Source of the DNA: Marchantia polymorpha subsp. ruderalis | Taxonomy: Eukaryota > Streptophyta > Marchantiopsida > Marchantiales > Marchantiaceae | DNA length: 64,000 nucleotides | Assembly (NCBI GenBank): GCA_037833965.1 | Contig: AP031356.1 | Location: 2,998,501-3,062,500 of the forward strand | Direction: 5' to 3' | In this document: piece by piece, positions 2,565-62,389 of the stretch | How the letters are laid out: each line of letters starts with the position of its first letter | How positions within the stretch are numbered: the stretch's first letter is position 1 | The notes under the pieces: model-generated | Databases searched by the model: none | What the model saw: only the letters and a program-made list of their open reading frames with translations | What the model was told of the DNA's origin: nothing | Translations under genes and position numbers: made by a program

Positions 2565-2569
2565 TGGAG
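2565..2569. repeat. Target-site duplication of L1 (TGGAG)
   Basis: TGGAG at 2565-2569 is repeated at 7415-7419, directly flanking the LTR termini at 2570 and 7414. Confidence 0.9.
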
Positions 2570-3601: not shown

Positions 3602-3620
3602 AAGAACGTTGGACGTTCTT
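3602..3620 (+). promoter_or_regulatory. Conserved inverted repeat upstream of the U3 ORF
   Basis: AAGAACGT-TGG-ACGTTCTT is a perfect 8-bp inverted repeat with a 3-base spacer, about 280 bases before the U3 ORF start. It is also present in the other S1 LTRs, for example near 2318, 9043, 18016, 28833, 31612 and 36227. A protein-binding or RNA-structure role is only inferred. Confidence 0.4.
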
Positions 3621-3902
3621 GAAATCGGAGAAGAAAAGACTGCGCTCAAGTCTCATTCTCTCATTCTTGACTTTGCGATTTCCAGTTCCAAGATTACGCG
3701 CAAGGGCGGAGCGACCTGCAGTGAGAGTAGAGAGTGCGGAGACGAGTTGCGCAAGGATCTTGGCGGACCTTGAAAGAATTGTGAGTAGCGATCTTGAACG
3801 AGCGCAGAGAGAGTGAGCAGTCAGTGCTTGAGTGACCGACGCGCAGTGGCGATTGTGAGAGAGAGAGCGAAAGGGAGAACGTTTGTGTGTGCAGGCAACG
3901 CA

Positions 3903-6458: not shown

Positions 6459-6491
6459 GATAGTGTAGTGCTAGTTAGGATCTTTTGAGAG

Positions 6492-6498
6492 TATAAAG
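6492..6498 (+). promoter_or_regulatory. LTR TATA box (L1)
   Basis: TATAAAG lies 33 bases after the U3 ORF stop and is followed by the inverted repeat CAAGGC-GTTTT-GCCTTG at 6504-6520. This probably marks the U3/R boundary. Confidence 0.7.
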
Positions 6499-7414
6499 TA
6501 GATCAAGGCGTTTTGCCTTGGGACTCTTCCAGTTTCGGAAGTGCAGATCAGGAACTCACTTTCTTGGCGTGTTTGTGCATTTGGTCCTGGCACCACGTAG
6601 AGAAGCTGCAGCATAGCGAAGTTACCGTATGTTGTAGTTGAAGGCCTTCGGCTGAATGTTCAGAGCTCGCACCCGGTTAGAGACTTGAGTAGTGCGGATC
6701 TGCACCTGCGGGTGATTTCTGATGCTCAGAGCCGGCTGCGAGTTAGAGACTTGAACAGTTCCCCCTTACTCCTTCGAGTGACATATCCTGATTGTACTCC
6801 TACGGGAAGTTTCCCCTGAATGCCAATGTGAAGTTTCATTACTTCGTGTAAACCTTGGTTTGTAATTCAGGTTGTGTGTGTGTTACTGGATCGTGTTTTC
6901 AGTAAGTTCTCAGTCGGGTCTGCACTCCCTGCGTTTTGTGTGATAGTCGAGGGTGACGTCCACGGCGTACGTAGAGGCTTCGTTCCGAAGTGAGAAGTCC
7001 AGTCCGGGTACCCCCGCTAGTTTCTGGCGGAAGGGCAGTAAAAGCCGGAGTGGGAGGCACTTCCTGCAGAACCTCTGAGTGAACTTGCGAGACACTTTCC
7101 TCCTGAAATCCGAAGCGGAGGTCCTGACCGACCTCCGAGTTGTGCTTTTTGCCAGTTTCAGGTGTGTGTGTGTGTGTGTTAAGTGACCAAGCTGTACCGT
7201 GCATCCTCCGAGCATCCTCCGAGTTGAGATCCTCCTCCGAGTCGAGCCTCCGAGTCGAGCACTGCAGTATTTCTGGGAGTGACAGTCGCCTAGAATTCAA
7301 ACTCTACAAAAGTCTGTTAAACGTGACACTTTTACTCTGTGTGTTGCCTCTGTCCCTGTGGGTTCGATCTTTTTACCACCATACTGCAGTTTTAGCCTTT
7401 GGTGGGTTATTACA

Positions 7415-14033: not shown

Positions 14034-14952
14034 TGTAATAACCCACCAAAGGCTAAAACTGCAGTATGGTGGTAAAAAGATCGAACCCACAGGGACAGAG
14101 GCAACACACAGAGTAAAAGTGTCACATTTAACAGACTTTTGGTAGAGTTTGAATTCTAGGCGACTGTCACTCCCAGAAATACTGCAGTGCTCGACTCGGA
14201 GGCTCGACTCGGAGGAGGAACTCAACTCGGAGGATGCTCGGAGGATGCACGGTACAGCTTGGTCACTCAACACACACACACACACACACCTGAAACTGGC
14301 AAAAAGCACAACTCGGAGGTCGGTCAGGACCTCCGCTTCGGATTTCAGGAGGAAAGTGTCTCGCAAGTTCACTCAGAGGTTCTGCAGGAAGTGCCTCCCA
14401 CTCCGGCTTTTACTGCCCTTCCGCCAGGAACTAGCGGGGGTACCCGGACTGGACTTCTCACTTCGGAACGAAGCCTCTACGTACGCCGTGGACGTCACCC
14501 TCGACTATCACACAAAACGCAGGGAGTGCAGACCCGACTGAGAACTTACTGAAAACACGATCCAGTAACACACACACAACCTGAATTACAAACCAAGGTT
14601 TACACGAAGTAATGAAACTTCACATTGGCATTCAGGGGAAACTTCCCGTAGGAGTACAATCAGGATATGTCACTCGAAGGAGTAAGGGGGAACTGTTCAA
14701 GTATCTAACTCGCAGCCGGCTCTGAGTATCAGAAATCACCCGCAGGTGCAGATCCGCACTACTCAAGTCTCTAACCGGGTACTAGCTCTGAACATTCAGC
14801 CGAAGGCCTTCAACTACAACATACGGTAACTTCGCTATGCTGCAGCTTCTCTACGTGGTGCCAGGACCAAATGCACAAACACGCCAAGAAAGTGAGTTCC
14901 TGATCTGCACTTCCGAAACTGGAAGAGTCCCAAGGCAAAACGCCTTGATCTA

Positions 14953-14959
14953 CTTTATA
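14953..14959 (-). promoter_or_regulatory. LTR TATA box (E1 3' LTR)
   Basis: TATAAAG on the minus strand, 33 bases after the U3 ORF stop. It is followed by the inverted repeat CAAGGC-GTTTT-GCCTTG (14931-14947). Confidence 0.7.
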
Positions 14960-14992
14960 CTCTCAAAAGATCCTAACTAGCACTACGCTATC

Positions 14993-17734
14993 CTATCTAC
15001 CACTCGCAGCATCTGCGCGAAACCAAACTACTCTACTGCACTCAGCAGATCCGGTGCTGCGCCTCCTGCGCGCCGGACTGCTCCGCTTACTGTCTCTACC
15101 TTGCCAGTCTTCCGACCGGCTGCGTAACCCCAGGCGTCGGAGCGCTGCAGTGACTTCCGACTGCAAGTGCGCCATAGTGTCGCGCGCACCCGACAAGAAA
15201 GTTTCTAATTTTCTCGCCACTCGCCGCCGACTCCGACTATCACCCTCCGTCAATGCCGCCGCCCGAAGCTCGAACTCCCGGAGTGTAACCCTCTCTTGGG
15301 CTGCCACCTCCCAATGGGTGTATCCGTTTAGACAACGAGTCACCCGTGCCGCCAACTCTCCTCGTACCCTGCAGCTGCTCTCCACCTCTGCCAGCTGCAT
15401 TTCTAAATCCGCACGTTGTGCCCTCAAATCCGAGCACTCGGTTTGCAAGTTGCACAACAACTCCTCATCCTCCTTGCGGGCTCGTTGACTTTCCTCTAAG
15501 GCGCGCGTCTGGCGCGCAAGCTCGGCTGCTAGGACTTTGTTCTGTCTCCGCTCCTCCTGCAGTTCCGACTCGATCTTTGCCCGTATTAGTTCGGCCTCCG
15601 CCTGACTCTTCGTCGCCGCATCCTCCTTCTGCTGCTGCAAGGCTTGGTACAGCTTCTGGGTGACCGCCAGGTGTTGTCGGAGGGCGGTGTTGCTATCCAC
15701 ATATACTCCGCATCTAGAGGCCCACCTTGCCACCTTGCTCCTCGTCCTTCGCCTGATTGTCTCCACATAAGACTGCGGTTTTAAGGCACTTGCGTATTTG
15801 GATGTCTTGCGATCCAGATATCGCAGGAGTGGAACTATCTGTTCGCACAGCACCCCTGTTGGCGTTTTCTGCACCGAATCCTCTTCTTGCTCTTCCGAGC
15901 TCGTCTCATCCTCAGTCTCGAGGATTTCAGTCGCCACCGAATCCCTTGGCGACTCCCTGGAACTGTGGCGCGCAGCAGCTTCTGCTGCGACTGCTGCTCC
16001 ACTGCCTGCTAAAATATCCAGGGCAGTGGGAGATCCCACTGCTTGAGCCCCTGTTCCGGCTCGATCTTCGGTTTGTGAAGGGGTCGACGCCGTAGTGACT
16101 TTTGTCACTCTTGCACCGCCCGCTTCTGCTGCCTGTCCTTCCGGCGCAATCTGCGCGGAAGGTGTCCTTGCTGAAGGTGCGTCCGCCGAAGGCGTCCGCA
16201 CACTGGTTGTTGGCTCCATCCGTCTCGCAGTCGGCGAATCCGGCTGACTCTCTGTTGTCCGACTCGCAGTCGGCCGACCAGCAGTTGTCCGACTGGGAGT
16301 CGGATACACCCTGCGCGTCTTGACTCCACTTGGCCTGTTTGCTGGTGGCGTTCTTCCAGAAGTGCCTTCCGCCGAAGACGACCCTCTGAGGATTGTTGGC
16401 TCCATCCGTCTCGCAGTCGGCGAATCCGGCTGACTCTCTGTTGTCCGACTCGCAGTCGGCCGACCAGCAGTTGTCCGACTGGGAGTCGGATACACCCTGC
16501 GCGTCTTGACTCCACTTGGCCTGTTTGCTGGTGGCGTTCTTTCAGAAGTGCCTTCCGCCGAAGACGACCCTCTAAGGATTGTTGGCTCGTCAGCCAAACT
16601 CTCTTCCGCTTCCGGCCTGCTGTCCGGTTCAACGCGCCGTTCAGTTGGCCTTCCTTCCGCTTGTCGACCTTCAGTCATCCGACTCGCAGTCGGATGACTG
16701 TCAGTCCTTCCATCTCCTCCCGAAGGCCGTGGTGCCTTCTGTGCAGAGGTTTCTGCCGTCTTCCCTAGGACCTGAGCAATTATCTCTTCCTGCGTGAGAT
16801 TCCGCCGGGTCGGAGTTCGCCTGGTCTCCTCAGTAACAGTTGGCATTCTGCGTGCCCTCTGTTTTGGTCGACTGTGAGGCTCGGGGGTGGGCCGACCACG
16901 AGTCGGCGCAGCTGGTACTTCCGGCTGCTTGTCCTCAGGTCTCTCATCCCACTTCCGCTTGCGCGGAATACGCTCACTTCGACGTTCTTCTGCTGCTCTG
17001 GCTGGAGCCGGAGCCGGAGGCGTACTGGCAGGTTCCTCGTCCGGATCCGTGTCTACTTCGGCCTCCCTCGAATATCTACCTGGATAAGACCGACTCAGCT
17101 GCGGAAACCGAGTTTTCTCAGCATTCGTCAAACATCCCATCGCCCGGTAAAACACGATTAAGTAAGGCGATAGATGATTGAGCGTTCCTCCCCTCTCTTC
17201 TTGCGCATGTTGGCGCGTCACCTTCCACAGGAGTCGTGCCCAATGCACCGGAGCTCCTGACAACACTAGCTCCACGAACTCTACCTGCCAACCATGCATG
17301 TAAGCGGTCTTGGTCGGCTGCAATATCTGCAGCAATGCTGTCGCGACATTTCTCCGCAATCGATCCTTGTAATCCCGAGTCCGGAAACCGTTCTTGGGAT
17401 GTCTAGCCACCTTGAAGAGCTCATTGTAAGAGACTTCTTCCTCCTGGGACACTTTCACGCTGTCGGCCTCGAAGAGGAGATCCCCTTCCTCGCCGGCACA
17501 CCTGCCCAACACCTGCGCCCAATTGCAAATTTCCCATCTCTCTGGGTGTGGACGAAATCCGCGAGAAGGCTTGTGTCTCTCTTGCAGATACTCGCGCACC
17601 ATCTCCGGACACGTCCAATTCCACCCCCAGAGGAGAAAATCGAGCTTCAGCCTCGTCAGCACATCTTGAAATGCGCGTAGACCGATCTGCGGCACCCTGA
17701 GTGGAGACACTCGCAGTTGGGGAACCTTCGACAT
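14993..17734 (-). CDS. U3-encoded LTR protein, E1 3' LTR copy (913 aa)
   Basis: An uninterrupted 914-codon frame lies in the U3 of E1's 3' LTR. The start was chosen at the conserved MSKVPQLRV; a GTF-type leader with another in-frame ATG six codons upstream is also open. The architecture matches the L1 copy: conserved N-terminal domain (residues 1 to about 240), Arg/Pro/Thr/Ser linker, and coiled-coil C-terminus with a basic tail. It is 62 residues longer than L1 because a 186-bp segment of the linker (starting PTILRGSSS) is tandemly duplicated. Because U3 of the 3' LTR lies inside the genomic transcript, this copy would be transcribed downstream of pol, in the position of an accessory gene. 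How it is translated is unknown, and so is the function. Confidence 0.82.
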   Translation of the reverse strand: MSKVPQLRVSPLRVPQIGLRAFQDVLTRLKLDFLLWGWNWTCPEMVREYLQERHKPSRGFRPHPERWEICNWAQVLGRCAGEEGDLLFEADSVKVSQEEEVSYNELFKVARHPKNGFRTRDYKDRLRRNVATALLQILQPTKTAYMHGWQVEFVELVLSGAPVHWARLLWKVTRQHAQEERGGTLNHLSPYLIVFYRAMGCLTNAEKTRFPQLSRSYPGRYSREAEVDTDPDEEPASTPPAPAPARAAEERRSERIPRKRKWDERPEDKQPEVPAAPTRGRPTPEPHSRPKQRARRMPTVTEETRRTPTRRNLTQEEIIAQVLGKTAETSAQKAPRPSGGDGRTDSHPTASRMTEGRQAEGRPTERRVEPDSRPEAEESLADEPTILRGSSSAEGTSERTPPANRPSGVKTRRVYPTPSRTTAGRPTASRTTESQPDSPTARRMEPTILRGSSSAEGTSGRTPPANRPSGVKTRRVYPTPSRTTAGRPTASRTTESQPDSPTARRMEPTTSVRTPSADAPSARTPSAQIAPEGQAAEAGGARVTKVTTASTPSQTEDRAGTGAQAVGSPTALDILAGSGAAVAAEAAARHSSRESPRDSVATEILETEDETSSEEQEEDSVQKTPTGVLCEQIVPLLRYLDRKTSKYASALKPQSYVETIRRRTRSKVARWASRCGVYVDSNTALRQHLAVTQKLYQALQQQKEDAATKSQAEAELIRAKIESELQEERRQNKVLAAELARQTRALEESQRARKEDEELLCNLQTECSDLRAQRADLEMQLAEVESSCRVRGELAARVTRCLNGYTHWEVAAQERVTLREFELRAAALTEGDSRSRRRVARKLETFLSGARDTMAHLQSEVTAALRRLGLRSRSEDWQGRDSKRSSPARRRRSTGSAECSRVVWFRADAASGR
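16207..16578 (-). repeat. 186-bp tandem duplication in the linker of E1's U3 ORF
   Basis: Two adjacent near-identical 186-bp units lie in the linker (offset 186 between the two TTGTTGGCTCC occurrences). The unit length is a multiple of three, so the frame is kept. The other S1 copies (L1, L4, L2) have one unit. The same duplication is in the 5' LTR at 27024-27395. Confidence 0.88.
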
Positions 17735-19060
17735 TGCGTTGCCTGCACACACAAACGTTCTCCCTTTCGCTCACTCTCTCACAATCGCCACTGCGCGTCG
17801 GCCACTCAAGCACTGACTGCTCACTCTCTCTGCGCTCGTTCAAGATCGCTACTCCCAATTCTTTCAAGGTCCGCCAAGATCCTTGTGCAACTCGTCTCCG
17901 CACTCTCTACTCTCACTGCAGGTCGCTCCGCCCTCGCGCGTAATCTTGGAACTGGAAATTGCAAAGTCAAGAATGAGAGAATGAGACTGGAGCGCAGTCT
18001 TTTCTTCTCCGATTTCAAGAACGTCCAACGTTCTTACTGGTTGCAACGTACGCAGCCGGCTATACGGCTTAACGGTTCGCCCTTTGCATGCGCGAATTCA
18101 CGTCTCCGCATTGCGCGCATTCGCATGCTTAAACGTTGAATTCTCCCACCGCCGCCACCTTCCGGACTCGAGTCCGCTGCAGGGTATACGTCGGCCCTGT
18201 TGTCTTTTCCTAACCCGCCCTTCTCCGGAGGCGTGTCGCCGCTGGCGCGTTCATTATCCGTCGGCGCCTTGCTGGAGGCGCACATCCAGCCGGAGCGAAT
18301 TACGCCGGCGCGCAGTCGTACCGCCTATTTTGTCCTTTATGCCTCGTTCGTTGCTGCCAGCGCATCCGGCCGTCAGCGCCACGTCGGAGGCGTACATCCG
18401 ACCGGCGCTTTCCTTCCATGAACAGCCGCCAAGGGCGCTTCCGACTCTGAGGTGGTTTCCTCCTGTGAGCGCGTGATTCCGCCGAAGGCGCATCGCCGAG
18501 GGCGTACGGGAATCCTTTCCGGCTGTGAACCCTAGCGCGAACGGCGCATGTCCGGCTACGAGTTTTCCGACGCTCATAACTTCTCCATTCCTGATCCATC
18601 TCCGGCGCTCTTGGACTCGTTAGAACAAGCGTCCCGAGCTCTTTCTAATGCAACTTCAACCAACTGGATCTACCGTGTATCCCGATTGTTATGAAGGTTT
18701 TCCCTTTCCGCGTTAGCGGCGCTTCGCCGAAGGCGCACTCATGGTCGGATGCCTTTAGAGGTCCGGGCCCTTCTCCTGACGTCGTTAGCAAAACCCCCTC
18801 CTGAGGTGTCTGCGCCGGAAGCGTAGCTTCCTTATGCGCTAGAGGCGCGTGAGTAGAGACACCTCAAAAAGGAGCTTTTGCCGAAGGCGCCGAAGACGTT
18901 GGCGTGGGTACATCCGACTACGTGATTCTTTGTGCCCTCGTGACGATCTCATCAATCCACTCTATTTAGCGTACCCTTCTCTAGCTACAAACACTGCTTT
19001 GGTACTAGTTTTCTAAAATTGTTTAAATTCTGCAAAAAAAACAAAAAGTGTGTTACCACA

Positions 19061-19073
19061 TGCCCCCCTCCTC
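19061..19073 (-). promoter_or_regulatory. Polypurine tract of E1
   Basis: GAGGAGGGGGGCA on the minus strand directly abuts the 3' LTR, as expected of the plus-strand primer. Confidence 0.9.
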
Positions 19074-19097
19074 AATTGTGAGCGCCCACGCGAACAT

Positions 19098-21938
19098 TTA
19101 TACGTGGTATTTCTTCAGACGCCATCCGTTCACGCGGGTGCCTAACCATTCTCCCGTCAGTTCTGCGAGTTGGATGGATCCATTTGGAAAAACTTCTATC
19201 ACCTTGTAAGGTCCCATCCACCTCAAGTGGAGCTTGCCTGGAAATCTAGCATGTCTGCTATCGTATAGCAGAGCCAAGTCGCCCTTCTCCAGCAGTACTG
19301 GTTTGAGCCTTCGATCGTACTTCTCCTTGCGCCTGAGTTGTAATTGCTTTGTCCGATCTTCGGCCTCTTGACGTCTTTCCTCCAGTGCCATTACCTCTTG
19401 CAGTCGATATGCCTGACTTTCTTCCGCGTCCAGCCTTCTCTGATCTAAGGTCCTCTTGGTAGGTATCTCGAATTCGATGGGTAAGATCGGATGCTGCCCA
19501 TAAACTAGGAAGTAAGGTGTTTGCCTGGTGGTGACTTTTTCTGCCGTTCTATATGCCCATAAGGCGGCCGGTAGCTTGGTGTCCCAGTCATGAGCATGGT
19601 TTACAGTCACCTTGAGGAGTATCTTACAGAGTAATCCATTGGACTTCTCTGTCAGACCATTTGCCTTGGGGTTGTATGGAGTAGTCTTCCGATGCTTAAT
19701 CTGGAAGTGCCGCGTCAAACTTTCTATCACCTGATTCAGAAAGTGCGTCCCTCTGTCACTGACTATTTCTAGGGGGCACCCGTAGCGGGTGATGATTGAT
19801 TCGAATAGGAACCGTGCTACTGCGGCTGCGTCATCGTGCCTTGTGGCTTCTGCCTCCACCATCTTGGTCGCATAGTCTGTTGCTACCAATATGTAGCGCC
19901 TGCGCGTGCCTTTAGTGACAGGTTGTATTGGTCCCACGAAGTCGATCCCCCATTTTTCAAACGGTGCCAATGGCATGATTGGTGTAAGAGGCCATCTCGT
20001 GGTCGGAGTCGGCCTTCCCGTTCTCTGGCAGCTGTCGCATTTGCGAACGTAGTCGTGTACATCTTTGAACATCGTCGGCCACCAGTATCCTGCATTCACA
20101 ATTTTGGTCACTGTGTTTCTGGTGGCGTAGTGACCACCAGCGTCTTCTGTGTGCATGGCTTTGACAACTCGCGGTACTTCAGACTCCTCTAGACATCTGC
20201 ACAACCTCTCGTCTGCCATTTTCTTGAACAAGACCCCCTGTTGAAGCTGGTAAGGTCCCGCTTTATGAACGAAGACTGTGCGCTGCTCCGCATCCAATCC
20301 TTCCGGACATTGGAGTGTGAGCAGAAACCTGTATAAGTCCGCGTACCTGGACTCATGGCTGGCGTACAACTGAAAAAGTTGTTCGTCGGGAAAATCATCC
20401 ACTACTTCCTCCTCTATGGGTTCGGTCCATAGTCGGGAGAGGTAGTCTGCGTTCTCATGGTGAACGCCTTTCCGTGTCTGTACCGTGTAGGTGAATTCCT
20501 GCAGCAGTAGTACCCACCTGGCAATTCGTCCGGACAGATCCGCCTTCTTCACCAGGTGCTGTAAGGCGTAATGATCTACATGAAACACGAACTCATAGCA
20601 GATCAAATAATGTCGGAACTTCTTGCAGGAGTACACCATTCCCAACGCCTCCCTCTCAGTTGTCGTGTATTTCTTCTCTGCTGCTGACAACTGACGACTC
20701 GCGAAGTAAATCGGGTAGTCTTTCTTGTTGTCGTCCTTCTGACTGAGAACCACTCCGATTGCAAACGCCGACGTGTCTACATAGACATGGAAAGGTCTGT
20801 TCCAATCCGGACTTCTCAGAACCGGAGCAGTCGTCAGTTTGGCTTTGAGCGTTTCAAAGGCCAGCTGTTGCTCCTTGCCCCACACATAGGGTTCATCCTT
20901 CTTAAGCAGCTTCGTCAGATCGGCTGCCAAGATGGCATACATATTTATGAACCTTCTGTAATAACCTACATGGCCAAGGAAGGCCCTCAACTCACGCAGA
21001 TTCGTTGGCGGCTGCAGTTCAAGAATAATCTTCACCTTCTCTACATCCACTGCAATGCCATCGGACGAAACTCGGTGCCCCAGCAGAATTCCGCTGGTCA
21101 TGAAGAAAAAACATTTCTCAGGGTGTAAGGACAAGCTGCTTTCCCTACACCTGTCGAACGTTTGCCGAAGATGGTTAAGGTGCTCCGACCTCTTACCGAA
21201 GACACAAAAGTCGTCGATGAAAATTTCTAGGAACTTCCTCAGGTGCTCTTGGAAAATGTTTGTCATCATCCGCTGGAACGTCGCTGGCGCGTTGCACAGA
21301 CCGAACGGCATCTTGTGATAAGCATAGGTTCCCCAGTCGGTCGTGAAGGTTGTTTTGTCCTTGTCCTGTTCCCTGATGGACACCTGGTTGTAGCCGGAGA
21401 ATCCGTCTAGGAAACTGTAGCATTCATGCCCTGCTACATGGTCCAGAATAGAGTCCGTGAAAGGAAGAGGGTGATGGTCCTTTCGCGTTGCTGCGTTCAG
21501 CTTCCTGAAGTCCTGACACACCCGGATCTTACCCGTCAGTTTCTTGGGCACGATCACGATAGGCGACACCCACTCGCTACTAAGTACCGGGTAGATGATT
21601 CCGGCGCTCAGGTACTTATCGATTTCGTCCTTCACCAATAATGAATATTTTGGGTTGAGCCTGTATTGGCGTTGGCGAACCGGAACTGCCTCGTCCAACA
21701 AGTCGATCCTGTGCTCTCCATACCTTGCAGGTATGCCTTTCATGTCTTCAATCTTCCATGCGAAGACATCCTCATACTGGCGAAGAAACGCCTGTACCCT
21801 GTTCAACTCTTCTCCTTGTACCTGGCTTGACACCTTCAAGCCTTTACCTGGACTGAGCTGCAGTTCGCAGCAATCACTCGGGTCAACAATCCCCTCTGTG
21901 TGACTGATCTCGCTTCTGCCCAGTCCGGCTGCTAGTTG
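19098..21938 (-). CDS. pol: E1 RT-RNase H-integrase polyprotein part
   Basis: The frame is in phase with the protease frame upstream and separated from it only by the UAG at 21939-21941. The first Met is at 21839, 34 codons in, so either readthrough or internal initiation could produce it. From that Met (913 aa), reverse transcriptase covers about residues 50-290, with RVCQDFRKLN, FLDGFSGYNQ, MPFGLCNAPATFQ and the catalytic IFIDDF. RNase H (about 330-470) has VDTSAFAIG, TEREALG and VDHYALQHL. Integrase follows, with an H-H-C-C zinc finger ending CDSC (about 550-600) and a D-D-E core: WGIDFVGP/ATDYATK, VSDRGTHF and the Glu of LTEKSNG. There is no chromodomain. All catalytic residues I can check are present. 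It makes the cDNA and integrates it. Confidence 0.93.
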   Translation of the reverse strand, partial: QLAAGLGRSEISHTEGIVDPSDCCELQLSPGKGLKVSSQVQGEELNRVQAFLRQYEDVFAWKIEDMKGIPARYGEHRIDLLDEAVPVRQRQYRLNPKYSLLVKDEIDKYLSAGIIYPVLSSEWVSPIVIVPKKLTGKIRVCQDFRKLNAATRKDHHPLPFTDSILDHVAGHECYSFLDGFSGYNQVSIREQDKDKTTFTTDWGTYAYHKMPFGLCNAPATFQRMMTNIFQEHLRKFLEIFIDDFCVFGKRSEHLNHLRQTFDRCRESSLSLHPEKCFFFMTSGILLGHRVSSDGIAVDVEKVKIILELQPPTNLRELRAFLGHVGYYRRFINMYAILAADLTKLLKKDEPYVWGKEQQLAFETLKAKLTTAPVLRSPDWNRPFHVYVDTSAFAIGVVLSQKDDNKKDYPIYFASRQLSAAEKKYTTTEREALGMVYSCKKFRHYLICYEFVFHVDHYALQHLVKKADLSGRIARWVLLLQEFTYTVQTRKGVHHENADYLSRLWTEPIEEEVVDDFPDEQLFQLYASHESRYADLYRFLLTLQCPEGLDAEQRTVFVHKAGPYQLQQGVLFKKMADERLCRCLEESEVPRVVKAMHTEDAGGHYATRNTVTKIVNAGYWWPTMFKDVHDYVRKCDSCQRTGRPTPTTRWPLTPIMPLAPFEKWGIDFVGPIQPVTKGTRRRYILVATDYATKMVEAEATRHDDAAAVARFLFESIITRYGCPLEIVSDRGTHFLNQVIESLTRHFQIKHRKTTPYNPKANGLTEKSNGLLCKILLKVTVNHAHDWDTKLPAALWAYRTAEKVTTRQTPYFLVYGQHPILPIEFEIPTKRTLDQRRLDAEESQAYRLQEVMALEERRQEAEDRTKQLQLRRKEKYDRRLKPVLLEKGDLALLYDSRHARFPGKLHLRWMGPYKVIEVFPNGSIQLAELTGEWLGTRVNGWRLKKYHV

Positions 21939-21941
21939 CTA
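21933..21941 (-). promoter_or_regulatory. Candidate stop-codon readthrough site UAG-CAA-CUA between protease and RT
   Basis: On the minus strand the protease frame ends in TAG, followed by CAA CTA, and the frame stays open into RT. This fits the UAG-CAR-YYA context known from tobacco mosaic virus-type readthrough. The same nine bases occur in E3 at 33725-33733. Confidence 0.65.
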
Positions 21942-22634
21942 TTCCTCATCCGGATACACCTCGTCTCCTTCCTCCTCAATGGAGCAGCAAGTGACGTAGC
22001 CCACAAAGTCTTCCGACGTTTCGGTCTCTGAAGTGCATGATGAGCTGGTCTCCCCTCCGGTTGTGTAACCGGAGGTGGTGGAAGGTGTTTCGCCCTCATG
22101 GGGTACCTTGGTCCACGGTACGGTAACGACAGTCGGAGGGTCCGCAGGGCTACGGAACTGTAATCTCTTCCTACTCCAGTCACACCTTGCTTTGGCATCG
22201 TATAGCCAAGGTCTGCCAAGCAGCACATCATAACCTTTCTTCATCAGAGGTTGCAGTATTATGTAGGACAGTTGAAAGTCCACTCCTCCAATGTTGGTTC
22301 TCACATTGCTCAACATTCCTAGTGGCATTCTGCGTGTTTGATCGGCCAGTCGCAATACTCGGGATGTAGGCTCGAAGGTCTGGAATCCCAAGGAGTTCGC
22401 TGTCTCCTCGGTCATGATATTCACGCCCGAGCCGGAGTCCACTGGTACCTTCTGAATGACACAGCCTCCGATCTCTACTTCGATCTCTGGTGGTCCCAGG
22501 TCTCCTCCTTCCACTCTGTACACAGCCGGAAGTTTCTCTTTTCGGGGTTTGCGTGGTCGGCGCAACGAAAGCATCAGCATCCTCCTGTACGTCTTATTGT
22601 CTTCCAACAACTGGTGGAAGGAAATATTTGCCCT
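21939..22634 (-). CDS. pro: E1 aspartic protease
   Basis: The frame is in phase with gag, separated from it by one UAG at 22635-22637, and ends in UAG at 21939-21941. The first Met lies at 22610. The retropepsin active site is VDSGSGVNIM at about residues 57-66 from that Met, followed downstream by the hydrophobic-Gly pattern YDVLLGRPWL typical of retroelement proteases. The C-terminus is acidic and Ser/Thr-rich. It would cleave Gag and Pol. In E3 the codon corresponding to the upstream UAG is CAG, so gag and protease are one continuous frame there. Expression in E1 would need readthrough, reinitiation, or help from another copy. Confidence 0.88.
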   Translation of the reverse strand, partial: RANISFHQLLEDNKTYRRMLMLSLRRPRKPRKEKLPAVYRVEGGDLGPPEIEVEIGGCVIQKVPVDSGSGVNIMTEETANSLGFQTFEPTSRVLRLADQTRRMPLGMLSNVRTNIGGVDFQLSYIILQPLMKKGYDVLLGRPWLYDAKARCDWSRKRLQFRSPADPPTVVTVPWTKVPHEGETPSTTSGYTTGGETSSSCTSETETSEDFVGYVTCCSIEEEGDEVYPDEE

Positions 22635-24767
22635 CTAGCTCCCCATGTCTTTCACTATGTCGTAGGGAGTACTGGAAGTCACGGCCGGAAGCTTTCCTGT
22701 ACTCGCGGTCGGAAGGGGTGTAGGTGGCCTAACCGCCTTCCGGTCGTCGGATGTCATTCCGGCGCCCAGTGCTTCCTTGATGAGGTGACTCACCTCATCT
22801 TTGATGTCCGGAAGGTAATCTCGAGTCCGGAACTCTTCTGAATACCTGTCCGCTTTTTCTGAGTTCTGCTCCGGCTGGGTGTTTCTCATAGCCGGAGGTG
22901 TACCCGGCCTTCTCCTCGGGCCTTCTCTAACTTCTTTAGACTTTCTCCTCTCTTCCCTACGCTCGAGGCGGCGAGTGTCCTCATGGCCTTCTCCTCTCCT
23001 CTTCGAACTTCGGGTTTCTACCCGACCGCACATTACTTCTTCCTCTGGCCATACTTCGTTTTCTTCAGCTGGGTCCAGACTCAGTTCTACCTGGTTGACC
23101 TGCACCTCTTCCTTGCCAGGTGTTGATACGAAACGCACGGCTGGCCTAGGGATTTGGGGCTGGTCACATTCAGCTGCTGTATGTCCGGACTTCTTGCAAT
23201 TGCTGCACAATGGTGCATACCCCATTGGCCTCCTCGGGTGGGGACAGCTTGGCGCGTAATGCCCTATGTCTCCGCAGTTGTAGCAACCATCGAATTGTGG
23301 TCGAGGTCGGTTGTGATTGCCTGGAGGTGCCATGCGTCTTGGTGGGAGTGTACCCGCCATTTCCCTCGGAACAAAGCGCGGTATATGCACCGGTGGGTTC
23401 GGAGTTGTAGCTGGAGCTGTCTGTACCGAGTAGGCGGTGTCCTCAACCTGCTCAGCATAATACATAGGCGGCTCAGCATAATACATGGGGGTCTCCCACT
23501 GTGGTGCCCATTCGACCGCATTCACTGGGTAAGATGGCCTCGCGGACATGCACTCCGTGTTGGCATGTCCCACCTGTCCGCACGTAGTACACCAGAGATT
23601 CGCTCGTTGTCTCGCAGGTGATTTACGTCGGTCTTGGCCTCCCACTACATGAACTTTCAGGTCCGCAAAATTCTTCACCAGGTTGTCTACCTTGGCTGCG
23701 ATGTCCCCTTGAGTCTTCACTGGGATTCCCTTACCTCGATCCTTCTTCTTGATCGCACTGCGTTTCTTCTTCCGTCTTTCTTCTTCTGAAGATGACGAGT
23801 CCTCTTCCTCTTCCGAGGAAGAACTTGATTCGGAGGAGCTTGATTCTTCTGTCGAGGAAGGCGAGTTCCTTCTCTTCCGACGTCCGCCTTGCGACTTCTT
23901 CTTCGTCGACCGTCGGTCGCGTCTTCGAGTGTCAAGGGTTGACGTCTCAAAGGTCTCCGCGGAAGCTATCACATCTTGGATTGTGTCAGTCTTGCCTCTC
24001 CTACAGAAGGTCTCCATTTCCCTTGAGAGCCCTGTCACATACCAATCCACTGCCTGTTGTACCGAATACGGTTCTCCCGGGCCTGTCTTCGGAATTCGAT
24101 CTAGGAGGTCTTGGAATCTCTCAGTGTAGTCTCGAAGATTCTCCTTCCGCTCGCGTCGAAGATTTCGAAGCCGGGTCAGAACTCGACTGTCATATCCGAG
24201 TTCGCGGAACCGCTTCAGAAACTTTTCCTTGAGCTGAGCCCAGGTCCGGATGCCAGTGGGGTCGGTGCTCTCATGGTTGTACCAGCTACGCGCTCGTTTG
24301 CGTAGCAGGCTAGGAAAGATTCGTAATCTGTCTTCATCACTGGTCTCACGATTGGCGATGGAGACAGACTCGAAGAGCTTTATGTATGAATCTGCATCAT
24401 CGTCGTCGCCCGTTCCCGTGTATCTTGGATACGAATGTTTGGTGGTAGGTTGGGAAAACACCTGGCGGAGATTGGCTTGATGTTCTGCCATCGGTGATCC
24501 TGTCGACGGACTGATCCTAGGTTGGCCAAACTCAGGAAGAGTTCCTGTCGGAGGGATGTCCAATAGAACTGTTAGCTCAATGCTCTCGGTAGGTGAACTG
24601 GAACGCCTTTGTCTTCCAGTAGTCGGTGATGGCGATCTTTCTGCAGAGTCCTCACCGGGAGTCTTCTTTTTAGTTCGCCGTTTTGTTTCCACGGCTTTTT
24701 CTGAATCTCGACGGAGTTTCCGTGTGGCTCTCGCACTCAGGTTTCCCACACTATCGCTCGTCGACAT
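22635..24767 (-). CDS. gag: E1 Gag (710 aa)
   Basis: The first ATG (24767) is 44 bases after the primer site and begins MSTSDSVGNL. The N-terminus is basic. A retrotransposon-gag capsid domain lies at about residues 120-280, with the motifs ADSYIKLFE, RARSWYNHE, TWAQLKEKF, LRDYTERFQDLL and VDWYVTGL. A Ser/Glu/Lys-rich stretch follows. Three CCHC zinc knuckles come next (CTTCGQVGHANTEC, CYNCGDIGHYAPSC, CSNCKKSGHTAAEC), which bind the genomic RNA. The frame ends at UAG (22635-22637). In the older copy E3 that codon is CAG and the frame continues into protease, so this stop is either a mutation in E1 or a variable Gag terminator. The product forms the virus-like particle. Confidence 0.92.
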   Translation of the reverse strand: MSTSDSVGNLSARATRKLRRDSEKAVETKRRTKKKTPGEDSAERSPSPTTGRQRRSSSPTESIELTVLLDIPPTGTLPEFGQPRISPSTGSPMAEHQANLRQVFSQPTTKHSYPRYTGTGDDDDADSYIKLFESVSIANRETSDEDRLRIFPSLLRKRARSWYNHESTDPTGIRTWAQLKEKFLKRFRELGYDSRVLTRLRNLRRERKENLRDYTERFQDLLDRIPKTGPGEPYSVQQAVDWYVTGLSREMETFCRRGKTDTIQDVIASAETFETSTLDTRRRDRRSTKKKSQGGRRKRRNSPSSTEESSSSESSSSSEEEEDSSSSEEERRKKKRSAIKKKDRGKGIPVKTQGDIAAKVDNLVKNFADLKVHVVGGQDRRKSPARQRANLWCTTCGQVGHANTECMSARPSYPVNAVEWAPQWETPMYYAEPPMYYAEQVEDTAYSVQTAPATTPNPPVHIPRFVPREMAGTLPPRRMAPPGNHNRPRPQFDGCYNCGDIGHYAPSCPHPRRPMGYAPLCSNCKKSGHTAAECDQPQIPRPAVRFVSTPGKEEVQVNQVELSLDPAEENEVWPEEEVMCGRVETRSSKRRGEGHEDTRRLERREERRKSKEVREGPRRRPGTPPAMRNTQPEQNSEKADRYSEEFRTRDYLPDIKDEVSHLIKEALGAGMTSDDRKAVRPPTPLPTASTGKLPAVTSSTPYDIVKDMGS

Positions 24768-24810
24768 TCACCGAGCATTGCTGCTCAAGGGTTCTGGTGT
24801 TGACGCACTG

Positions 24811-24828
24811 TCCCCGGCAGCGGCGCCA
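24811..24828 (-). promoter_or_regulatory. Primer binding site, tRNA-Asp type
   Basis: TGGCGCCGCTGCCGGGGA on the minus strand begins 22 bases inside the 5' LTR edge at 24851. It is complementary to the 3' end of plant tRNA-Asp(GTC) with one mismatch as I recall that tRNA. This primer type is usual for Athila/Tat elements. It is also present in E3 at 41495-41512. Confidence 0.85.
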
Positions 24829-25769
24829 AAAAGAAGTTGTCGGCTCCTTATGTAATAACCCACCAAAGGCTAAAACTGCAGTATGGTGGTAAAAAGATCG
24901 AACCCACAGGGACAGAGGCAACACACAGAGTAAAAGTGTCACATTTAACAGACTTTTGGTAGAGTTTGAATTCTAGGCGACTGTCACTCCCAGAAATACT
25001 GCAGTGCTCGACTCGGAGGCTCGACTCGGAGGAGGAACTCAACTCGGAGGATGCTCGGAGGATGCACGGTACAGCTTGGTCACTCAACACACACACACAC
25101 ACACACCTGAAACTGGCAAAAAGCACAACTCGGAGGTCGGTCAGGACCTCCGCTTCGGATTTCAGGAGGAAAGTGTCTCGCAAGTTCACTCAGAGGTTCT
25201 GCAGGAAGTGCCTCCCACTCCGGCTTTTACTGCCCTTCCGCCAGGAACTAGCGGGGGTACCCGGACTGGACTTCTCACTTCGGAACGAAGCCTCTACGTA
25301 CGCCGTGGACGTCACCCTCGACTATCACACAAAACGCAGGGAGTGCAGACCCGACTGAGAACTTACTGAAAACACGATCCAGTAACACACACACAACCTG
25401 AATTACAAACCAAGGTTTACACGAAGTAATGAAACTTCACATTGGCATTCAGGGGAAACTTCCCGTAGGAGTACAATCAGGATATGTCACTCGAAGGAGT
25501 AAGGGGGAACTGTTCAAGTATCTAACTCGCAGCCGGCTCTGAGTATCAGAAATCACCCGCAGGTGCAGATCCGCACTACTCAAGTCTCTAACCGGGTACT
25601 AGCTCTGAACATTCAGCCGAAGGCCTTCAACTACAACATACGGTAACTTCGCTATGCTGCAGCTTCTCTACGTGGTGCCAGGACCAAATGCACAAACACG
25701 CCAAGAAAGTGAGTTCCTGATCTGCACTTCCGAAACTGGAAGAGTCCCAAGGCAAAACGCCTTGATCTA

Positions 25770-25776
25770 CTTTATA
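25770..25776 (-). promoter_or_regulatory. LTR TATA box (E1 5' LTR), probable genomic promoter
   Basis: TATAAAG on the minus strand, the equivalent of 14953-14959. About 0.9 kb of R-U5 separates it from gag. Confidence 0.72.
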
Positions 25777-25809
25777 CTCTCAAAAGATCCTAACTAGCAC
25801 TACGCTATC

Positions 25810-28551
25810 CTATCTACCACTCGCAGCATCTGCGCGAAACCAAACTACTCTACTGCACTCAGCAGATCCGGTGCTGCGCCTCCTGCGCGCCGGACTGCTC
25901 CGCTTACTGTCTCTACCTTGCCAGTCTTCCGACCGGCTGCGTAACCCCAGGCGTCGGAGCGCTGCAGTGACTTCCGACTGCAAGTGCGCCATAGTGTCGC
26001 GCGCACCCGACAAGAAAGTTTCTAATTTTCTCGCCACTCGCCGCCGACTCCGACTATCACCCTCCGTCAATGCCGCCGCCCGAAGCTCGAACTCCCGGAG
26101 TGTAACCCTCTCTTGGGCTGCCACCTCCCAATGGGTGTATCCGTTTAGACAACGAGTCACCCGTGCCGCCAACTCTCCTCGTACCCTGCAGCTGCTCTCC
26201 ACCTCTGCCAGCTGCATTTCTAAATCCGCACGTTGTGCCCTCAAATCCGAGCACTCGGTTTGCAAGTTGCACAACAACTCCTCATCCTCCTTGCGGGCTC
26301 GTTGACTTTCCTCTAAGGCGCGCGTCTGGCGCGCAAGCTCGGCTGCTAGGACTTTGTTCTGTCTCCGCTCCTCCTGCAGTTCCGACTCGATCTTTGCCCG
26401 TATTAGTTCGGCCTCCGCCTGACTCTTCGTCGCCGCATCCTCCTTCTGCTGCTGCAAGGCTTGGTACAGCTTCTGGGTGACCGCCAGGTGTTGTCGGAGG
26501 GCGGTGTTGCTATCCACATATACTCCGCATCTAGAGGCCCACCTTGCCACCTTGCTCCTCGTCCTTCGCCTGATTGTCTCCACATAAGACTGCGGTTTTA
26601 AGGCACTTGCGTATTTGGATGTCTTGCGATCCAGATATCGCAGGAGTGGAACTATCTGTTCGCACAGCACCCCTGTTGGCGTTTTCTGCACCGAATCCTC
26701 TTCTTGCTCTTCCGAGCTCGTCTCATCCTCAGTCTCGAGGATTTCAGTCGCCACCGAATCCCTTGGCGACTCCCTGGAACTGTGGCGCGCAGCAGCTTCT
26801 GCTGCGACTGCTGCTCCACTGCCTGCTAAAATATCCAGGGCAGTGGGAGATCCCACTGCTTGAGCCCCTGTTCCGGCTCGATCTTCGGTTTGTGAAGGGG
26901 TCGACGCCGTAGTGACTTTTGTCACTCTTGCACCGCCCGCTTCTGCTGCCTGTCCTTCCGGCGCAATCTGCGCGGAAGGTGTCCTTGCTGAAGGTGCGTC
27001 CGCCGAAGGCGTCCGCACACTGGTTGTTGGCTCCATCCGTCTCGCAGTCGGCGAATCCGGCTGACTCTCTGTTGTCCGACTCGCAGTCGGCCGACCAGCA
27101 GTTGTCCGACTGGGAGTCGGATACACCCTGCGCGTCTTGACTCCACTTGGCCTGTTTGCTGGTGGCGTTCTTCCAGAAGTGCCTTCCGCCGAAGACGACC
27201 CTCTGAGGATTGTTGGCTCCATCCGTCTCGCAGTCGGCGAATCCGGCTGACTCTCTGTTGTCCGACTCGCAGTCGGCCGACCAGCAGTTGTCCGACTGGG
27301 AGTCGGATACACCCTGCGCGTCTTGACTCCACTTGGCCTGTTTGCTGGTGGCGTTCTTTCAGAAGTGCCTTCCGCCGAAGACGACCCTCTAAGGATTGTT
27401 GGCTCGTCAGCCAAACTCTCTTCCGCTTCCGGCCTGCTGTCCGGTTCAACGCGCCGTTCAGTTGGCCTTCCTTCCGCTTGTCGACCTTCAGTCATCCGAC
27501 TCGCAGTCGGATGACTGTCAGTCCTTCCATCTCCTCCCGAAGGCCGTGGTGCCTTCTGTGCAGAGGTTTCTGCCGTCTTCCCTAGGACCTGAGCAATTAT
27601 CTCTTCCTGCGTGAGATTCCGCCGGGTCGGAGTTCGCCTGGTCTCCTCAGTAACAGTTGGCATTCTGCGTGCCCTCTGTTTTGGTCGACTGTGAGGCTCG
27701 GGGGTGGGCCGACCACGAGTCGGCGCAGCTGGTACTTCCGGCTGCTTGTCCTCAGGTCTCTCATCCCACTTCCGCTTGCGCGGAATACGCTCACTTCGAC
27801 GTTCTTCTGCTGCTCTGGCTGGAGCCGGAGCCGGAGGCGTACTGGCAGGTTCCTCGTCCGGATCCGTGTCTACTTCGGCCTCCCTCGAATATCTACCTGG
27901 ATAAGACCGACTCAGCTGCGGAAACCGAGTTTTCTCAGCATTCGTCAAACATCCCATCGCCCGGTAAAACACGATTAAGTAAGGCGATAGATGATTGAGC
28001 GTTCCTCCCCTCTCTTCTTGCGCATGTTGGCGCGTCACCTTCCACAGGAGTCGTGCCCAATGCACCGGAGCTCCTGACAACACTAGCTCCACGAACTCTA
28101 CCTGCCAACCATGCATGTAAGCGGTCTTGGTCGGCTGCAATATCTGCAGCAATGCTGTCGCGACATTTCTCCGCAATCGATCCTTGTAATCCCGAGTCCG
28201 GAAACCGTTCTTGGGATGTCTAGCCACCTTGAAGAGCTCATTGTAAGAGACTTCTTCCTCCTGGGACACTTTCACGCTGTCGGCCTCGAAGAGGAGATCC
28301 CCTTCCTCGCCGGCACACCTGCCCAACACCTGCGCCCAATTGCAAATTTCCCATCTCTCTGGGTGTGGACGAAATCCGCGAGAAGGCTTGTGTCTCTCTT
28401 GCAGATACTCGCGCACCATCTCCGGACACGTCCAATTCCACCCCCAGAGGAGAAAATCGAGCTTCAGCCTCGTCAGCACATCTTGAAATGCGCGTAGACC
28501 GATCTGCGGCACCCTGAGTGGAGACACTCGCAGTTGGGGAACCTTCGACAT
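25810..28551 (-). CDS. U3-encoded LTR protein, E1 5' LTR copy (913 aa)
   Basis: The translation is identical to that of the 3' LTR copy (14993-17734), including the 62-residue linker duplication. Here the ORF lies upstream of the genomic promoter, so it would need its own promoter in the 1.3-kb U3 leader (28552-29877) or read-in from outside. I see no convincing TATA box there. Reverse transcription copies the 3' U3 into both LTRs, which explains the identity: each new insertion carries two copies. Confidence 0.82.
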   Translation of the reverse strand: MSKVPQLRVSPLRVPQIGLRAFQDVLTRLKLDFLLWGWNWTCPEMVREYLQERHKPSRGFRPHPERWEICNWAQVLGRCAGEEGDLLFEADSVKVSQEEEVSYNELFKVARHPKNGFRTRDYKDRLRRNVATALLQILQPTKTAYMHGWQVEFVELVLSGAPVHWARLLWKVTRQHAQEERGGTLNHLSPYLIVFYRAMGCLTNAEKTRFPQLSRSYPGRYSREAEVDTDPDEEPASTPPAPAPARAAEERRSERIPRKRKWDERPEDKQPEVPAAPTRGRPTPEPHSRPKQRARRMPTVTEETRRTPTRRNLTQEEIIAQVLGKTAETSAQKAPRPSGGDGRTDSHPTASRMTEGRQAEGRPTERRVEPDSRPEAEESLADEPTILRGSSSAEGTSERTPPANRPSGVKTRRVYPTPSRTTAGRPTASRTTESQPDSPTARRMEPTILRGSSSAEGTSGRTPPANRPSGVKTRRVYPTPSRTTAGRPTASRTTESQPDSPTARRMEPTTSVRTPSADAPSARTPSAQIAPEGQAAEAGGARVTKVTTASTPSQTEDRAGTGAQAVGSPTALDILAGSGAAVAAEAAARHSSRESPRDSVATEILETEDETSSEEQEEDSVQKTPTGVLCEQIVPLLRYLDRKTSKYASALKPQSYVETIRRRTRSKVARWASRCGVYVDSNTALRQHLAVTQKLYQALQQQKEDAATKSQAEAELIRAKIESELQEERRQNKVLAAELARQTRALEESQRARKEDEELLCNLQTECSDLRAQRADLEMQLAEVESSCRVRGELAARVTRCLNGYTHWEVAAQERVTLREFELRAAALTEGDSRSRRRVARKLETFLSGARDTMAHLQSEVTAALRRLGLRSRSEDWQGRDSKRSSPARRRRSTGSAECSRVVWFRADAASGR

Positions 28552-29877
28552 TGCGTTGCCTGCACACACAAACGTTCTCCCTTTCGCTCACTCTCTCACA
28601 ATCGCCACTGCGCGTCGGCCACTCAAGCACTGACTGCTCACTCTCTCTGCGCTCGTTCAAGATCGCTACTCCCAATTCTTTCAAGGTCCGCCAAGATCCT
28701 TGTGCAACTCGTCTCCGCACTCTCTACTCTCACTGCAGGTCGCTCCGCCCTCGCGCGTAATCTTGGAACTGGAAATTGCAAAGTCAAGAATGAGAGAATG
28801 AGACTGGAGCGCAGTCTTTTCTTCTCCGATTTCAAGAACGTCCAACGTTCTTACTGGTTGCAACGTACGCAGCCGGCTATACGGCTTAACGGTTCGCCCT
28901 TTGCATGCGCGAATTCACGTCTCCGCATTGCGCGCATTCGCATGCTTAAACGTTGAATTCTCCCACCGCCGCCACCTTCCGGACTCGAGTCCGCTGCAGG
29001 GTATACGTCGGCCCTGTTGTCTTTTCCTAACCCGCCCTTCTCCGGAGGCGTGTCGCCGCTGGCGCGTTCATTATCCGTCGGCGCCTTGCTGGAGGCGCAC
29101 ATCCAGCCGGAGCGAATTACGCCGGCGCGCAGTCGTACCGCCTATTTTGTCCTTTATGCCTCGTTCGTTGCTGCCAGCGCATCCGGCCGTCAGCGCCACG
29201 TCGGAGGCGTACATCCGACCGGCGCTTTCCTTCCATGAACAGCCGCCAAGGGCGCTTCCGACTCTGAGGTGGTTTCCTCCTGTGAGCGCGTGATTCCGCC
29301 GAAGGCGCATCGCCGAGGGCGTACGGGAATCCTTTCCGGCTGTGAACCCTAGCGCGAACGGCGCATGTCCGGCTACGAGTTTTCCGACGCTCATAACTTC
29401 TCCATTCCTGATCCATCTCCGGCGCTCTTGGACTCGTTAGAACAAGCGTCCCGAGCTCTTTCTAATGCAACTTCAACCAACTGGATCTACCGTGTATCCC
29501 GATTGTTATGAAGGTTTTCCCTTTCCGCGTTAGCGGCGCTTCGCCGAAGGCGCACTCATGGTCGGATGCCTTTAGAGGTCCGGGCCCTTCTCCTGACGTC
29601 GTTAGCAAAACCCCCTCCTGAGGTGTCTGCGCCGGAAGCGTAGCTTCCTTATGCGCTAGAGGCGCGTGAGTAGAGACACCTCAAAAAGGAGCTTTTGCCG
29701 AAGGCGCCGAAGACGTTGGCGTGGGTACATCCGACTACGTGATTCTTTGTGCCCTCGTGACGATCTCATCAATCCACTCTATTTAGCGTACCCTTCTCTA
29801 GCTACAAACACTGCTTTGGTACTAGTTTTCTAAAATTGTTTAAATTCTGCAAAAAAAACAAAAAGTGTGTTACCACA

Positions 29878-39086: not shown

Positions 39087-39118
39087 GATAGCGTAGTGCT
39101 AGTTAGGACCTTTGAGGG

Positions 39119-39125
39119 TATAAAA
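39119..39125 (+). promoter_or_regulatory. LTR TATA box (L4)
   Basis: TATAAAA, 32 bases after the U3 ORF stop, followed by CAAGGC-GTTTT-GCCTTG. Confidence 0.65.
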
Positions 39126-39787: not shown

Positions 39788-39820
<33 letters not shown>

Positions 39821-62272: not shown

Positions 62273-62389
62273 GGTTTCTTAACGTTTCATTAGAGTTGGC
62301 ACGAAGTTAACAGCATATCACCAGTTGTAAAACAGATATTTCGGCAGTAAGAATCGATTATAACTCATGGGCTGCTCGGATTAATCTTC

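What the first reader, a model, noticed from the sequence alone, without database searches (positions are those of the whole stretch)
14993..17734. A 913-codon sense-strand gene encoded wholly inside the LTR U3 of a plant retrotransposon
Seen: every S1 LTR in the window contains the same ORF upstream of the LTR TATA box, in the element's sense direction. It is intact in E1 (twice) and L1, intact before E1 insertion in L2, has one stop in L4, and is truncated in E3/L5. The lengths of L1 and L4 are identical (852 codons) and E1 differs by an exact multiple of three. Known: plant Tat/Athila elements carry extra ORFs between LTR and gag or after integrase; retroviral genes in U3 (MMTV sag, HIV nef) are the nearest analogy. 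Inference: this is a U3 accessory gene that inflates the LTR to 5 kb, is duplicated in each new copy, and survives in solo LTRs.
Basis: partly seen in the sequence, partly recalled or inferred. Interest (0 to 1): 0.9.

Follow-up and report, generated by a model that had tools for sequence, protein, structure and literature searches.

The report
Conserved gene inside a liverwort retrotransposon's LTR
A liverwort jumping gene carries a complete, selectively maintained protein gene inside each of its long terminal repeats, so a full copy brings two, and a bare leftover repeat can still hold one intact.

Summary
E1 (14034-29877, minus strand) is a Ty3/gypsy element with two identical 5,027-bp LTRs and a 5-bp target duplication. 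Each LTR holds a 913-aa ORF at LTR positions 1327-4068 in the element's sense direction; the only sense-strand TATAWA of the LTR starts 34 nt past the stop codon, so the ORF lies in U3. The genome is inferred to be Marchantia polymorpha. There, 15 groups of ORF hits spaced 10.63-10.82 kb mark LTR pairs. Among 20 distinct young copies there are 87 synonymous and 52 nonsynonymous changes, where neutrality predicts 2.1-2.9 nonsynonymous per synonymous (dN/dS about 0.2); between subfamilies dN/dS is 0.21-0.23. Window copies show 1 stop against roughly 55 expected. Solo LTR L1 keeps the ORF intact. A second subfamily repeats the layout (pol stop, 37 nt with PPT, LTR, ORF, TATA); at one locus of a third clade the ORF is followed by the same U5. 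The protein matches no Pfam family above cut-off and no solved structure; it is basic, with NLS-like motifs. Best reading: a 3' extra ORF enclosed in U3 because the PPT sits directly behind pol, encoding a trans-acting nuclear accessory protein. Expression and function were not shown.

The parts
14034..29877 (-). E1, complete Ty3/gypsy element, inserted into the ORF of solo LTR L2; TSD GTCAC
24851..29877 (-). 5' LTR of E1, 5,027 bp, TGTGGTAACAC...GGGTTATTACA
14034..19060 (-). 3' LTR of E1, identical to the 5' LTR
14993..17734 (-). U3 ORF, 913 aa, in the 3' LTR (the finding)
25810..28551 (-). U3 ORF, 913 aa, in the 5' LTR
25771..25776 (-). TATAAA, only sense-strand TATAWA in the E1 LTR, starts 34 nt downstream of the ORF stop; putative core promoter (same in the 3' LTR at 14954-14959)
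   Evidence: similar position in S2
24811..24828 (-). primer-binding-site-like TGGCGCCGCTGCCGGGGA, 22 nt after the 5' LTR (identity as PBS inferred; a tRNA pattern search found no match)
22635..24767 (-). gag part (Retrotrans_gag, CCHC); in E1 it ends at an extra in-frame stop
21939..22610 (-). aspartic protease part
19098..21839 (-). RT-RNase H-integrase ORF; stop codon at 19098-19100, 37 nt before the 3' LTR
19061..19073 (-). polypurine tract GAGGAGGGGGGCA directly before the 3' LTR and directly behind pol
2570..7414 (+). L1, complete solo LTR, TSD TGGAG
3903..6458 (+). intact 851-aa ORF in L1
11945..32682 (-). L2, solo LTR (TSD GTTCC) split by E1 (pieces 32682-29878 and 14033-11945); ORF open on both sides
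35174..40054 (+). L4 LTR; followed by internal sequence, no matching TSD, so not a clean solo LTR
36531..39086 (+). ORF of L4, one internal stop, same length as L1
42522..43493 (-). 3' part of the ORF in truncated LTR L5
8231..8749 (-). 5' part of the ORF in LTR piece L3
46974..49775 (-). diverged subfamily copy of the ORF, frameshifted; N-terminal 238 codons 60% identical, dN/dS 0.23
44217..45671 (+). second diverged copy, C-terminal half, dN/dS 0.21

Best explanation
Shown by sequence: a Ty3/gypsy family of a liverwort (inferred to be Marchantia polymorpha) carries a complete accessory gene inside its LTR, upstream of the putative core promoter, under purifying selection while the family amplified. 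Inferred, step by step: (1) the gene is a plant-type 3' extra ORF, since in the genomic RNA it would follow gag-pro-pol as the last cistron; (2) it came to lie in U3 because the polypurine tract, where plus-strand synthesis starts and U3 begins, sits within the 37 nt behind the pol stop, so everything downstream is copied into both LTRs; (3) it is expressed from a U3 promoter of its own or as a spliced 3' mRNA; (4) its product is a nuclear trans-acting accessory protein, most likely a regulator of the family's own LTRs or of their silencing, so that solo LTRs and defective copies can still make it.
For: Gene and selection. LTR location genome-wide: 15 groups of ORF hits 10.63-10.82 kb apart (13 pairs, 2 triplets), and a second subfamily with the ORF inside each of two LTRs that are 99.6% identical. 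Third clade, one locus: the ORF is followed by U5 77% identical to E1 LTR 4859-5005. PPT behind pol with the same 37-nt spacing in both subfamilies. ORF stop 34 and 37 nt before a TATA box in S1 and S2. Faster evolution than pol: between E1 and S2, pol 85-92%, gag 58.5%, U3 ORF 38-47% identity. Nuclear-protein guess: motifs of the PRKRKW and PKQKARKL kind recur across paralogs (by eye), pI 9.7, highest 19-residue hydropathy 1.22. Trans action: three S2 loci share one frameshift deletion, so a broken allele was copied.
Against: No transcript, peptide or localisation data were available. No Pfam or NCBIfam match above cut-off and no PDB relative. AlphaFold models of the N-terminal domain were poor (mean pLDDT 57.8 and 47.9) and Foldseek found nothing for the first. 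No relative with the ORF outside the LTR was found, so the PPT step is untested. Six of six S2 loci checked (L046, L048-L052), the window copy and L053 carry indels of 1 to 4 nt in the linker, though the query favoured such copies; L054 and L055 keep long single frames. S2 has a second TATAWA inside the ORF and ATGs at 252, 104 and 30 nt upstream of the start. Intact genomic copies were picked by protein score, which biases towards low dN. Species identity rests on one locus; the named protein closest to P0001 over a long stretch is only about 74% identical.
Confidence: 0.6

Rival explanations
1. The long frame is a chance or compositional artefact of a young repeat, intact only because the copies are recent.
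For: E1 LTRs are identical, and many genomic copies are 98-99% alike.
Against: dN/dS about 0.2 among young copies and 0.21-0.23 between subfamilies at dS 1.4-2.2; roughly 55 neutral stops expected, 1 seen; the only indel between E1 and the six compared window stretches is 186 nt.
Confidence: 0.02
2. The ORF is the first cistron of the genomic RNA: transcription starts upstream of it, so it lies in R or U5 rather than U3.
For: 1.3 kb precedes the ORF in the LTR, room for a promoter; no ATG within 354 nt before the E1 start codon (about 2% by chance).
Against: The only sense-strand TATAWA of the E1 LTR follows the ORF at 34 nt, and S2 has one at 37 nt; the ATG-free leader is not shared by S2.
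Confidence: 0.12
3. A captured host gene sits in the LTR as passenger or under host-level selection.
For: Large, single, well-formed gene without a recognised transposon domain.
Against: Every named homolog found is a Marchantia hypothetical protein of a large diverged family. The one candidate single-copy gene that I checked, the P0013 locus, is itself degenerate and followed by LTR U5. No named homolog outside Marchantia was found, but the searches scored capped candidate lists.
Confidence: 0.08
4. It is a structural or envelope-like product needed in the particle (env-like 3' ORF).
For: Position after pol in the RNA, as with plant 3' aORFs (PMC11728184, passages); divergence nearer to gag than to pol.
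Against: No strongly hydrophobic stretch (highest 19-residue Kyte-Doolittle mean 1.22; no dedicated predictor was run) and basic NLS-like motifs.
Confidence: 0.18

Closest known systems
Plant LTR-retrotransposon extra ORFs (eORF/aORF) of Ogre, Retand, Athila and Tekay elements (PMC6317226 and PMC11728184, passages read)
   Same: Extra gene besides gag-pol; follows pol in the RNA as 3' aORFs do; PMC6317226 notes that such ORFs may evolve fast.
   Different: In the passages read they are placed 5' or 3' of gag-pol and some carry PF10536, PF04195, PF03078 or PF20167; this one is wholly inside the LTR and matches none of these.
MMTV sag and lentiviral nef (recalled; MMTV papers appeared only in search listings)
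   Same: Accessory gene in U3, present in both LTRs.
   Different: Vertebrate retroviruses; nef lies only partly in U3 (recalled); here a 102-kDa basic plant protein. Protein relatedness was not tested directly.
CRM group A centromeric retrotransposons (PMC3059260, passages read)
   Same: Plant Ty3/gypsy with coding sequence inside the LTR (the CR motif).
   Different: There the polyprotein runs on into the 3' LTR; here pol stops 37 nt before the LTR and the U3 ORF is separate.
Rice Retrosat2 ORF0 (PMC3485330, passages read)
   Same: Long LTRs plus an extra ORF of unknown function, diverging faster than the polyprotein.
   Different: ORF0 is described upstream of ORF1, not as an LTR gene.
[not shown]
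   Same: Ty3/gypsy elements of Marchantia without an additional RNase H; E1 likewise has one RNase H region by Pfam.
   Different: The text that I read describes no LTR gene; RT phylogeny to place E1 was not done.

Membership tests
Ty3/gypsy LTR retrotransposon | gag, protease, RT-RNase H-integrase in this order between LTRs, 5-bp TSD | tested here: met
Chromovirus (e.g. CRM) | chromodomain at the integrase C-terminus | tested here: not met
   Pfam scan of the pol ORF up to E 1 lists no chromodomain; a degenerate one could be missed
CRM-type coding LTR | polyprotein frame continues into the LTR | tested here: not met
   pol stop 37 nt before the LTR in E1 and in S2
Tat lineage | placement in the RT phylogeny | not tested
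   [not shown]
Plant eORF with PMD, Transposase_28, Athila ORF1 or Transposase_32 | profile match to PF10536, PF04195, PF03078 or PF20167 | tested here: not met
   Pfam-A scans of P0001 (E up to 1), 11 N-terminal regions and 10 paralogs (E up to 10) listed none of the four; a PF04195 search of the genome gave 0 matches, but its 14 controls were silent too
Plant eORF/aORF | lies between LTR and gag-pol | tested here: not met
   ORF is at LTR 1327-4068 of 5027
U3 accessory gene (MMTV sag type) | complete sense ORF in U3, upstream of the LTR core promoter, in both LTRs | tested here: met
   by sequence; promoter inferred from TATA only
U3 accessory gene (MMTV sag type) | expressed protein with accessory function | not testable with these tools
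   no RNA or protein data
Env-like 3' ORF | transmembrane segment | tested here: not met
   hydropathy scan only: maximum 19-residue Kyte-Doolittle mean 1.22

The most novel reading that the evidence does not exclude
The LTR itself is a self-copying gene cassette: each LTR, solo LTRs included, encodes a nuclear protein that acts in trans on the family's LTRs (activation or anti-silencing). Formation of solo LTRs would then remove the enzymes but leave the helper gene, so the family keeps a distributed regulator across the genome.
Probability: 0.3. Interest if true: 0.88.

Novelty: new variant of a known kind. Interest (0 to 1): 0.74.

Why it matters
LTRs of plant retrotransposons are usually treated as noncoding control DNA, and solo LTRs as dead remnants (general knowledge). 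A selected gene of 850-913 codons inside U3, in two subfamilies with paired LTRs and apparently a third clade, means that such remnants can still encode a protein, offers one reason why some plant LTRs reach 5 kb, and gives a plant parallel to U3 genes of retroviruses. Marchantia is a laboratory model, so expression, localisation and effects on silencing are testable. It also concerns gene annotation: 92 of the 115 proteins found are annotated M. polymorpha hypothetical proteins, probably pieces of this LTR gene family (inference).

Tried and rejected
Chance ORF: rejected by codon statistics. Known domain: Pfam, NCBIfam and PDB sequence searches gave only weak hits under the cut-offs (for P0001 DUF7761 at E 0.045; for paralog P0040 Cu_amine_oxidN3 at E 0.0037, 18.0 bits against 22.6). 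A resemblance to PF20167 (recalled) was my lead and did not test out. Domestication: the P0013 locus was listed with an open frame of 902 codons and no stops and first looked like an intact single copy; reading the DNA showed stops, so I dropped it. Programmed frameshift in S2: copies with small indels in one linker looked striking, but my query itself carried the shifted frame, so the clustering is ascertainment. Absence of upstream ATGs in E1 is not shared by S2. Homologs that I first took for other-species proteins are probably paralogs of the same species. An ORF-blind genomic sample was attempted, but no letters remained. A tRNA for the primer site was sought by pattern, 0 matches.

Left out of counts: the comparison with 7-873 was saturated at synonymous sites (no dN/dS), and the comparison of 7-873 with the 47845 region crossed a frameshift (value 0.34, not used). 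For one search, L023 (premature stop) and identical duplicates were dropped, 31 sequences to 23; the young set of 20 also leaves out E1, L1 and L4. L001 and L002 are E1 itself.
Full report
What is there. The reported interval holds an open frame of 913 codons plus stop on the minus strand. It lies in the 3' LTR of a Ty3/gypsy element, E1, which runs on the minus strand from 29877 to 14034. Its LTRs (24851-29877, 14034-19060) are identical over 5,027 bp, and the flanks carry the 5-bp duplication GTCAC. Between them lie gag with CCHC knuckles, an aspartic protease, and RT-RNase H-integrase. The same ORF is in the 5' LTR. In LTR coordinates it spans 1327-4068; the one sense-strand TATAWA of the LTR starts at 4102, 34 nt past the stop. 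Taking that as the core promoter (inference), the ORF is entirely in U3. pol stops 37 nt before the LTR, and that gap holds the polypurine tract.

Copies in the window. L1 (2570-7414, +) is a complete solo LTR with TSD TGGAG and an intact 851-codon ORF. L2 is a solo LTR with TSD GTTCC, split by E1. L4 has one stop and continues into internal sequence without a matching TSD, so it is not a clean solo LTR. E1 differs from L1 and L4 by an in-frame 186-nt tandem duplication; that is the only indel in the six comparisons with E1. dN/dS of E1 against L1, L4, L2 (two pieces), L5 and L3 is 0.22, 0.25, 0.17, 0.25, 0.22 and 0.05; four pairs among the other copies give 0.22, 0.38, 0.09 and 0.38. If the six stretches had drifted neutrally, roughly 55 stops would be expected; there is 1 (based on a 4% stop share).

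Copies in the genome. The window is C7:2998501-3062500 of a 241.5-Mb, 9-contig genome. A M. polymorpha subsp. ruderalis protein, P0013, matches one degenerate locus in it at 98-100%, so I infer the species to be M. polymorpha; against this, no near-identical named protein of E1's own subfamily turned up, perhaps because young repeats are missing from the older assembly. The search with the ORF listed 98 hits (50 candidates scored, so a lower bound). By position they include 13 pairs and 2 triplets spaced 10.63-10.82 kb, the period of one LTR plus internal region. Of 28 fetched loci outside the window, 27 are intact (851 or 864 codons) and 1 has a premature stop; these were chosen by protein score, so the intact share is biased upward. 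Among 20 distinct copies, 87 synonymous and 52 nonsynonymous single changes were counted, and the neutral ratio computed for this ORF is 2.1-2.9 nonsynonymous per synonymous. The changes seen in one copy only (39 to 27) and those shared (48 to 25) both show it. For four elements (E1, L031-L033; six pairs) dN/dS is 0.09-0.19 in gag-pro, 0.02-0.03 in pol and 0.16-0.34 in the U3 ORF.

Deeper conservation. Against diverged window copies, dN/dS is 0.23 (N-terminal 238 codons, dS 1.4) and 0.21 (C-terminal 439 codons, dS 2.2); a third comparison was saturated. A second subfamily, S2, on C4 has LTRs 99.6% alike with the gene inside each; relative to E1, pol is 85-92%, gag 58.5%, and the U3 ORF 47% (N-terminal) and 38% (C-terminal) identical. 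Its layout repeats that of E1: pol stop, 37 nt with polypurine tract, LTR, ORF, and TATA 37 nt after the stop; a further TATAWA lies inside its ORF. In the most distant clade looked at (P0013, 45% identity), the one ORF copy examined is followed by U5 77% identical to that of E1. This suggests that the LTR location predates these clades. Against this stands that six of six S2 loci examined (L046, L048-L052), L053 and the window copy carry small indels, while L054 and L055 keep long single frames. The query favoured frameshifted copies. The three loci L048, L050 and L051 share one deletion, which shows that a broken allele was copied; the product, if needed, can act in trans.

The protein. It is 102 kDa with pI 9.7 and no strongly hydrophobic stretch. 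A conserved N-terminal domain of about 220 residues is followed by basic motifs (PRKRKW, PKQKARKL in paralogs), a Pro/Ser/Thr-rich linker, a conserved block near LLRYLDRK, and a charged, nearly proline-free C-terminal third with heptad-like periodicity. No Pfam or NCBIfam match passes its cut-off and no PDB sequence matches. Structure models were weak (pLDDT 57.8 and 47.9; only residues about 91-160 were confident in the first) and Foldseek found nothing. Three protein searches, each scoring a capped list of about 8,000 candidates, returned 12, 115 and 89 proteins; every one with a name is from M. polymorpha. Two gene models join integrase to this ORF, one in each order (P0081, P0108, judged by eye and by name), as expected if the ORF flanks pol on both sides.

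How it probably works. In the genomic RNA the ORF would be the last cistron, after pol and before R. That is the place of plant 3' extra ORFs. U3 begins at the polypurine tract; since the tract lies directly behind pol, the ORF is copied into both LTRs. I infer that a 3' extra ORF was enclosed this way; no relative with the older state was found. Expression may come from the 1.3 kb of U3 upstream of the ORF, or from a spliced mRNA: nine of nine S1 LTR starts looked at begin with a T-rich tract ending in GCAG, which resembles a splice acceptor, but S2 has only a weaker TTGTAG there. Function is inferred: basic NLS-like motifs, no evident membrane segment, fast evolution and possible trans action fit a nuclear regulator of LTR activity or silencing better than an env-like product.

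Novelty. Searches of the held library listed no plant case of a complete separate gene within an LTR: 25 of 137 papers listed; 25 of 1,106; 24 of 24; 20 of 20; 10 of 12; 3 of 3. The nearest are CRM group A, where the polyprotein runs into the 3' LTR (PMC3059260, passages), and extra ORFs outside the LTR (PMC6317226, PMC11728184, PMC3485330, passages). Most listed papers were not opened and subscription papers are mostly not held, so prior description cannot be excluded.

Noticed in passing
L031:169-5847 (reverse complement), L032, L033; window 19098-24767: In three genomic elements gag-pro (942-945 codons) and pol (946 codons) are in the same frame, parted by a single stop codon, which suggests stop-codon readthrough; E1 has one further stop within gag-pro.
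   Followed up: partly
window 1893-44180: The family is heavily nested in itself: E1 inside solo LTR L2 inside another element's internal region, and L1 inside a further LTR piece.
   Followed up: partly
G000 C5:31215655-31239521 and C5:9246393-9270257: Runs of three LTRs at 10.66-kb spacing with identical ORFs within each run, i.e. apparent LTR-internal-LTR-internal-LTR tandem arrays; the C4 S2 locus also has pol upstream of its first LTR.
   Followed up: no
L048, L050, L051: Three S2 loci on different contigs share a 1-nt deletion in the U3 ORF, so a frameshifted copy was mobilised.
   Followed up: partly
window 2570-2600, 19030-19060: S1 LTRs start with a T-rich tract followed by GCAG, a splice-acceptor-like site at the very start of U3.
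   Followed up: no
window 52000-64000: The right end drops to 34-42% GC, against 51-57% in the nested elements.
   Followed up: no
G000 contig C1: Many degenerate copies of the P0013 clade lie on contig C1, perhaps a sex chromosome.
   Followed up: no
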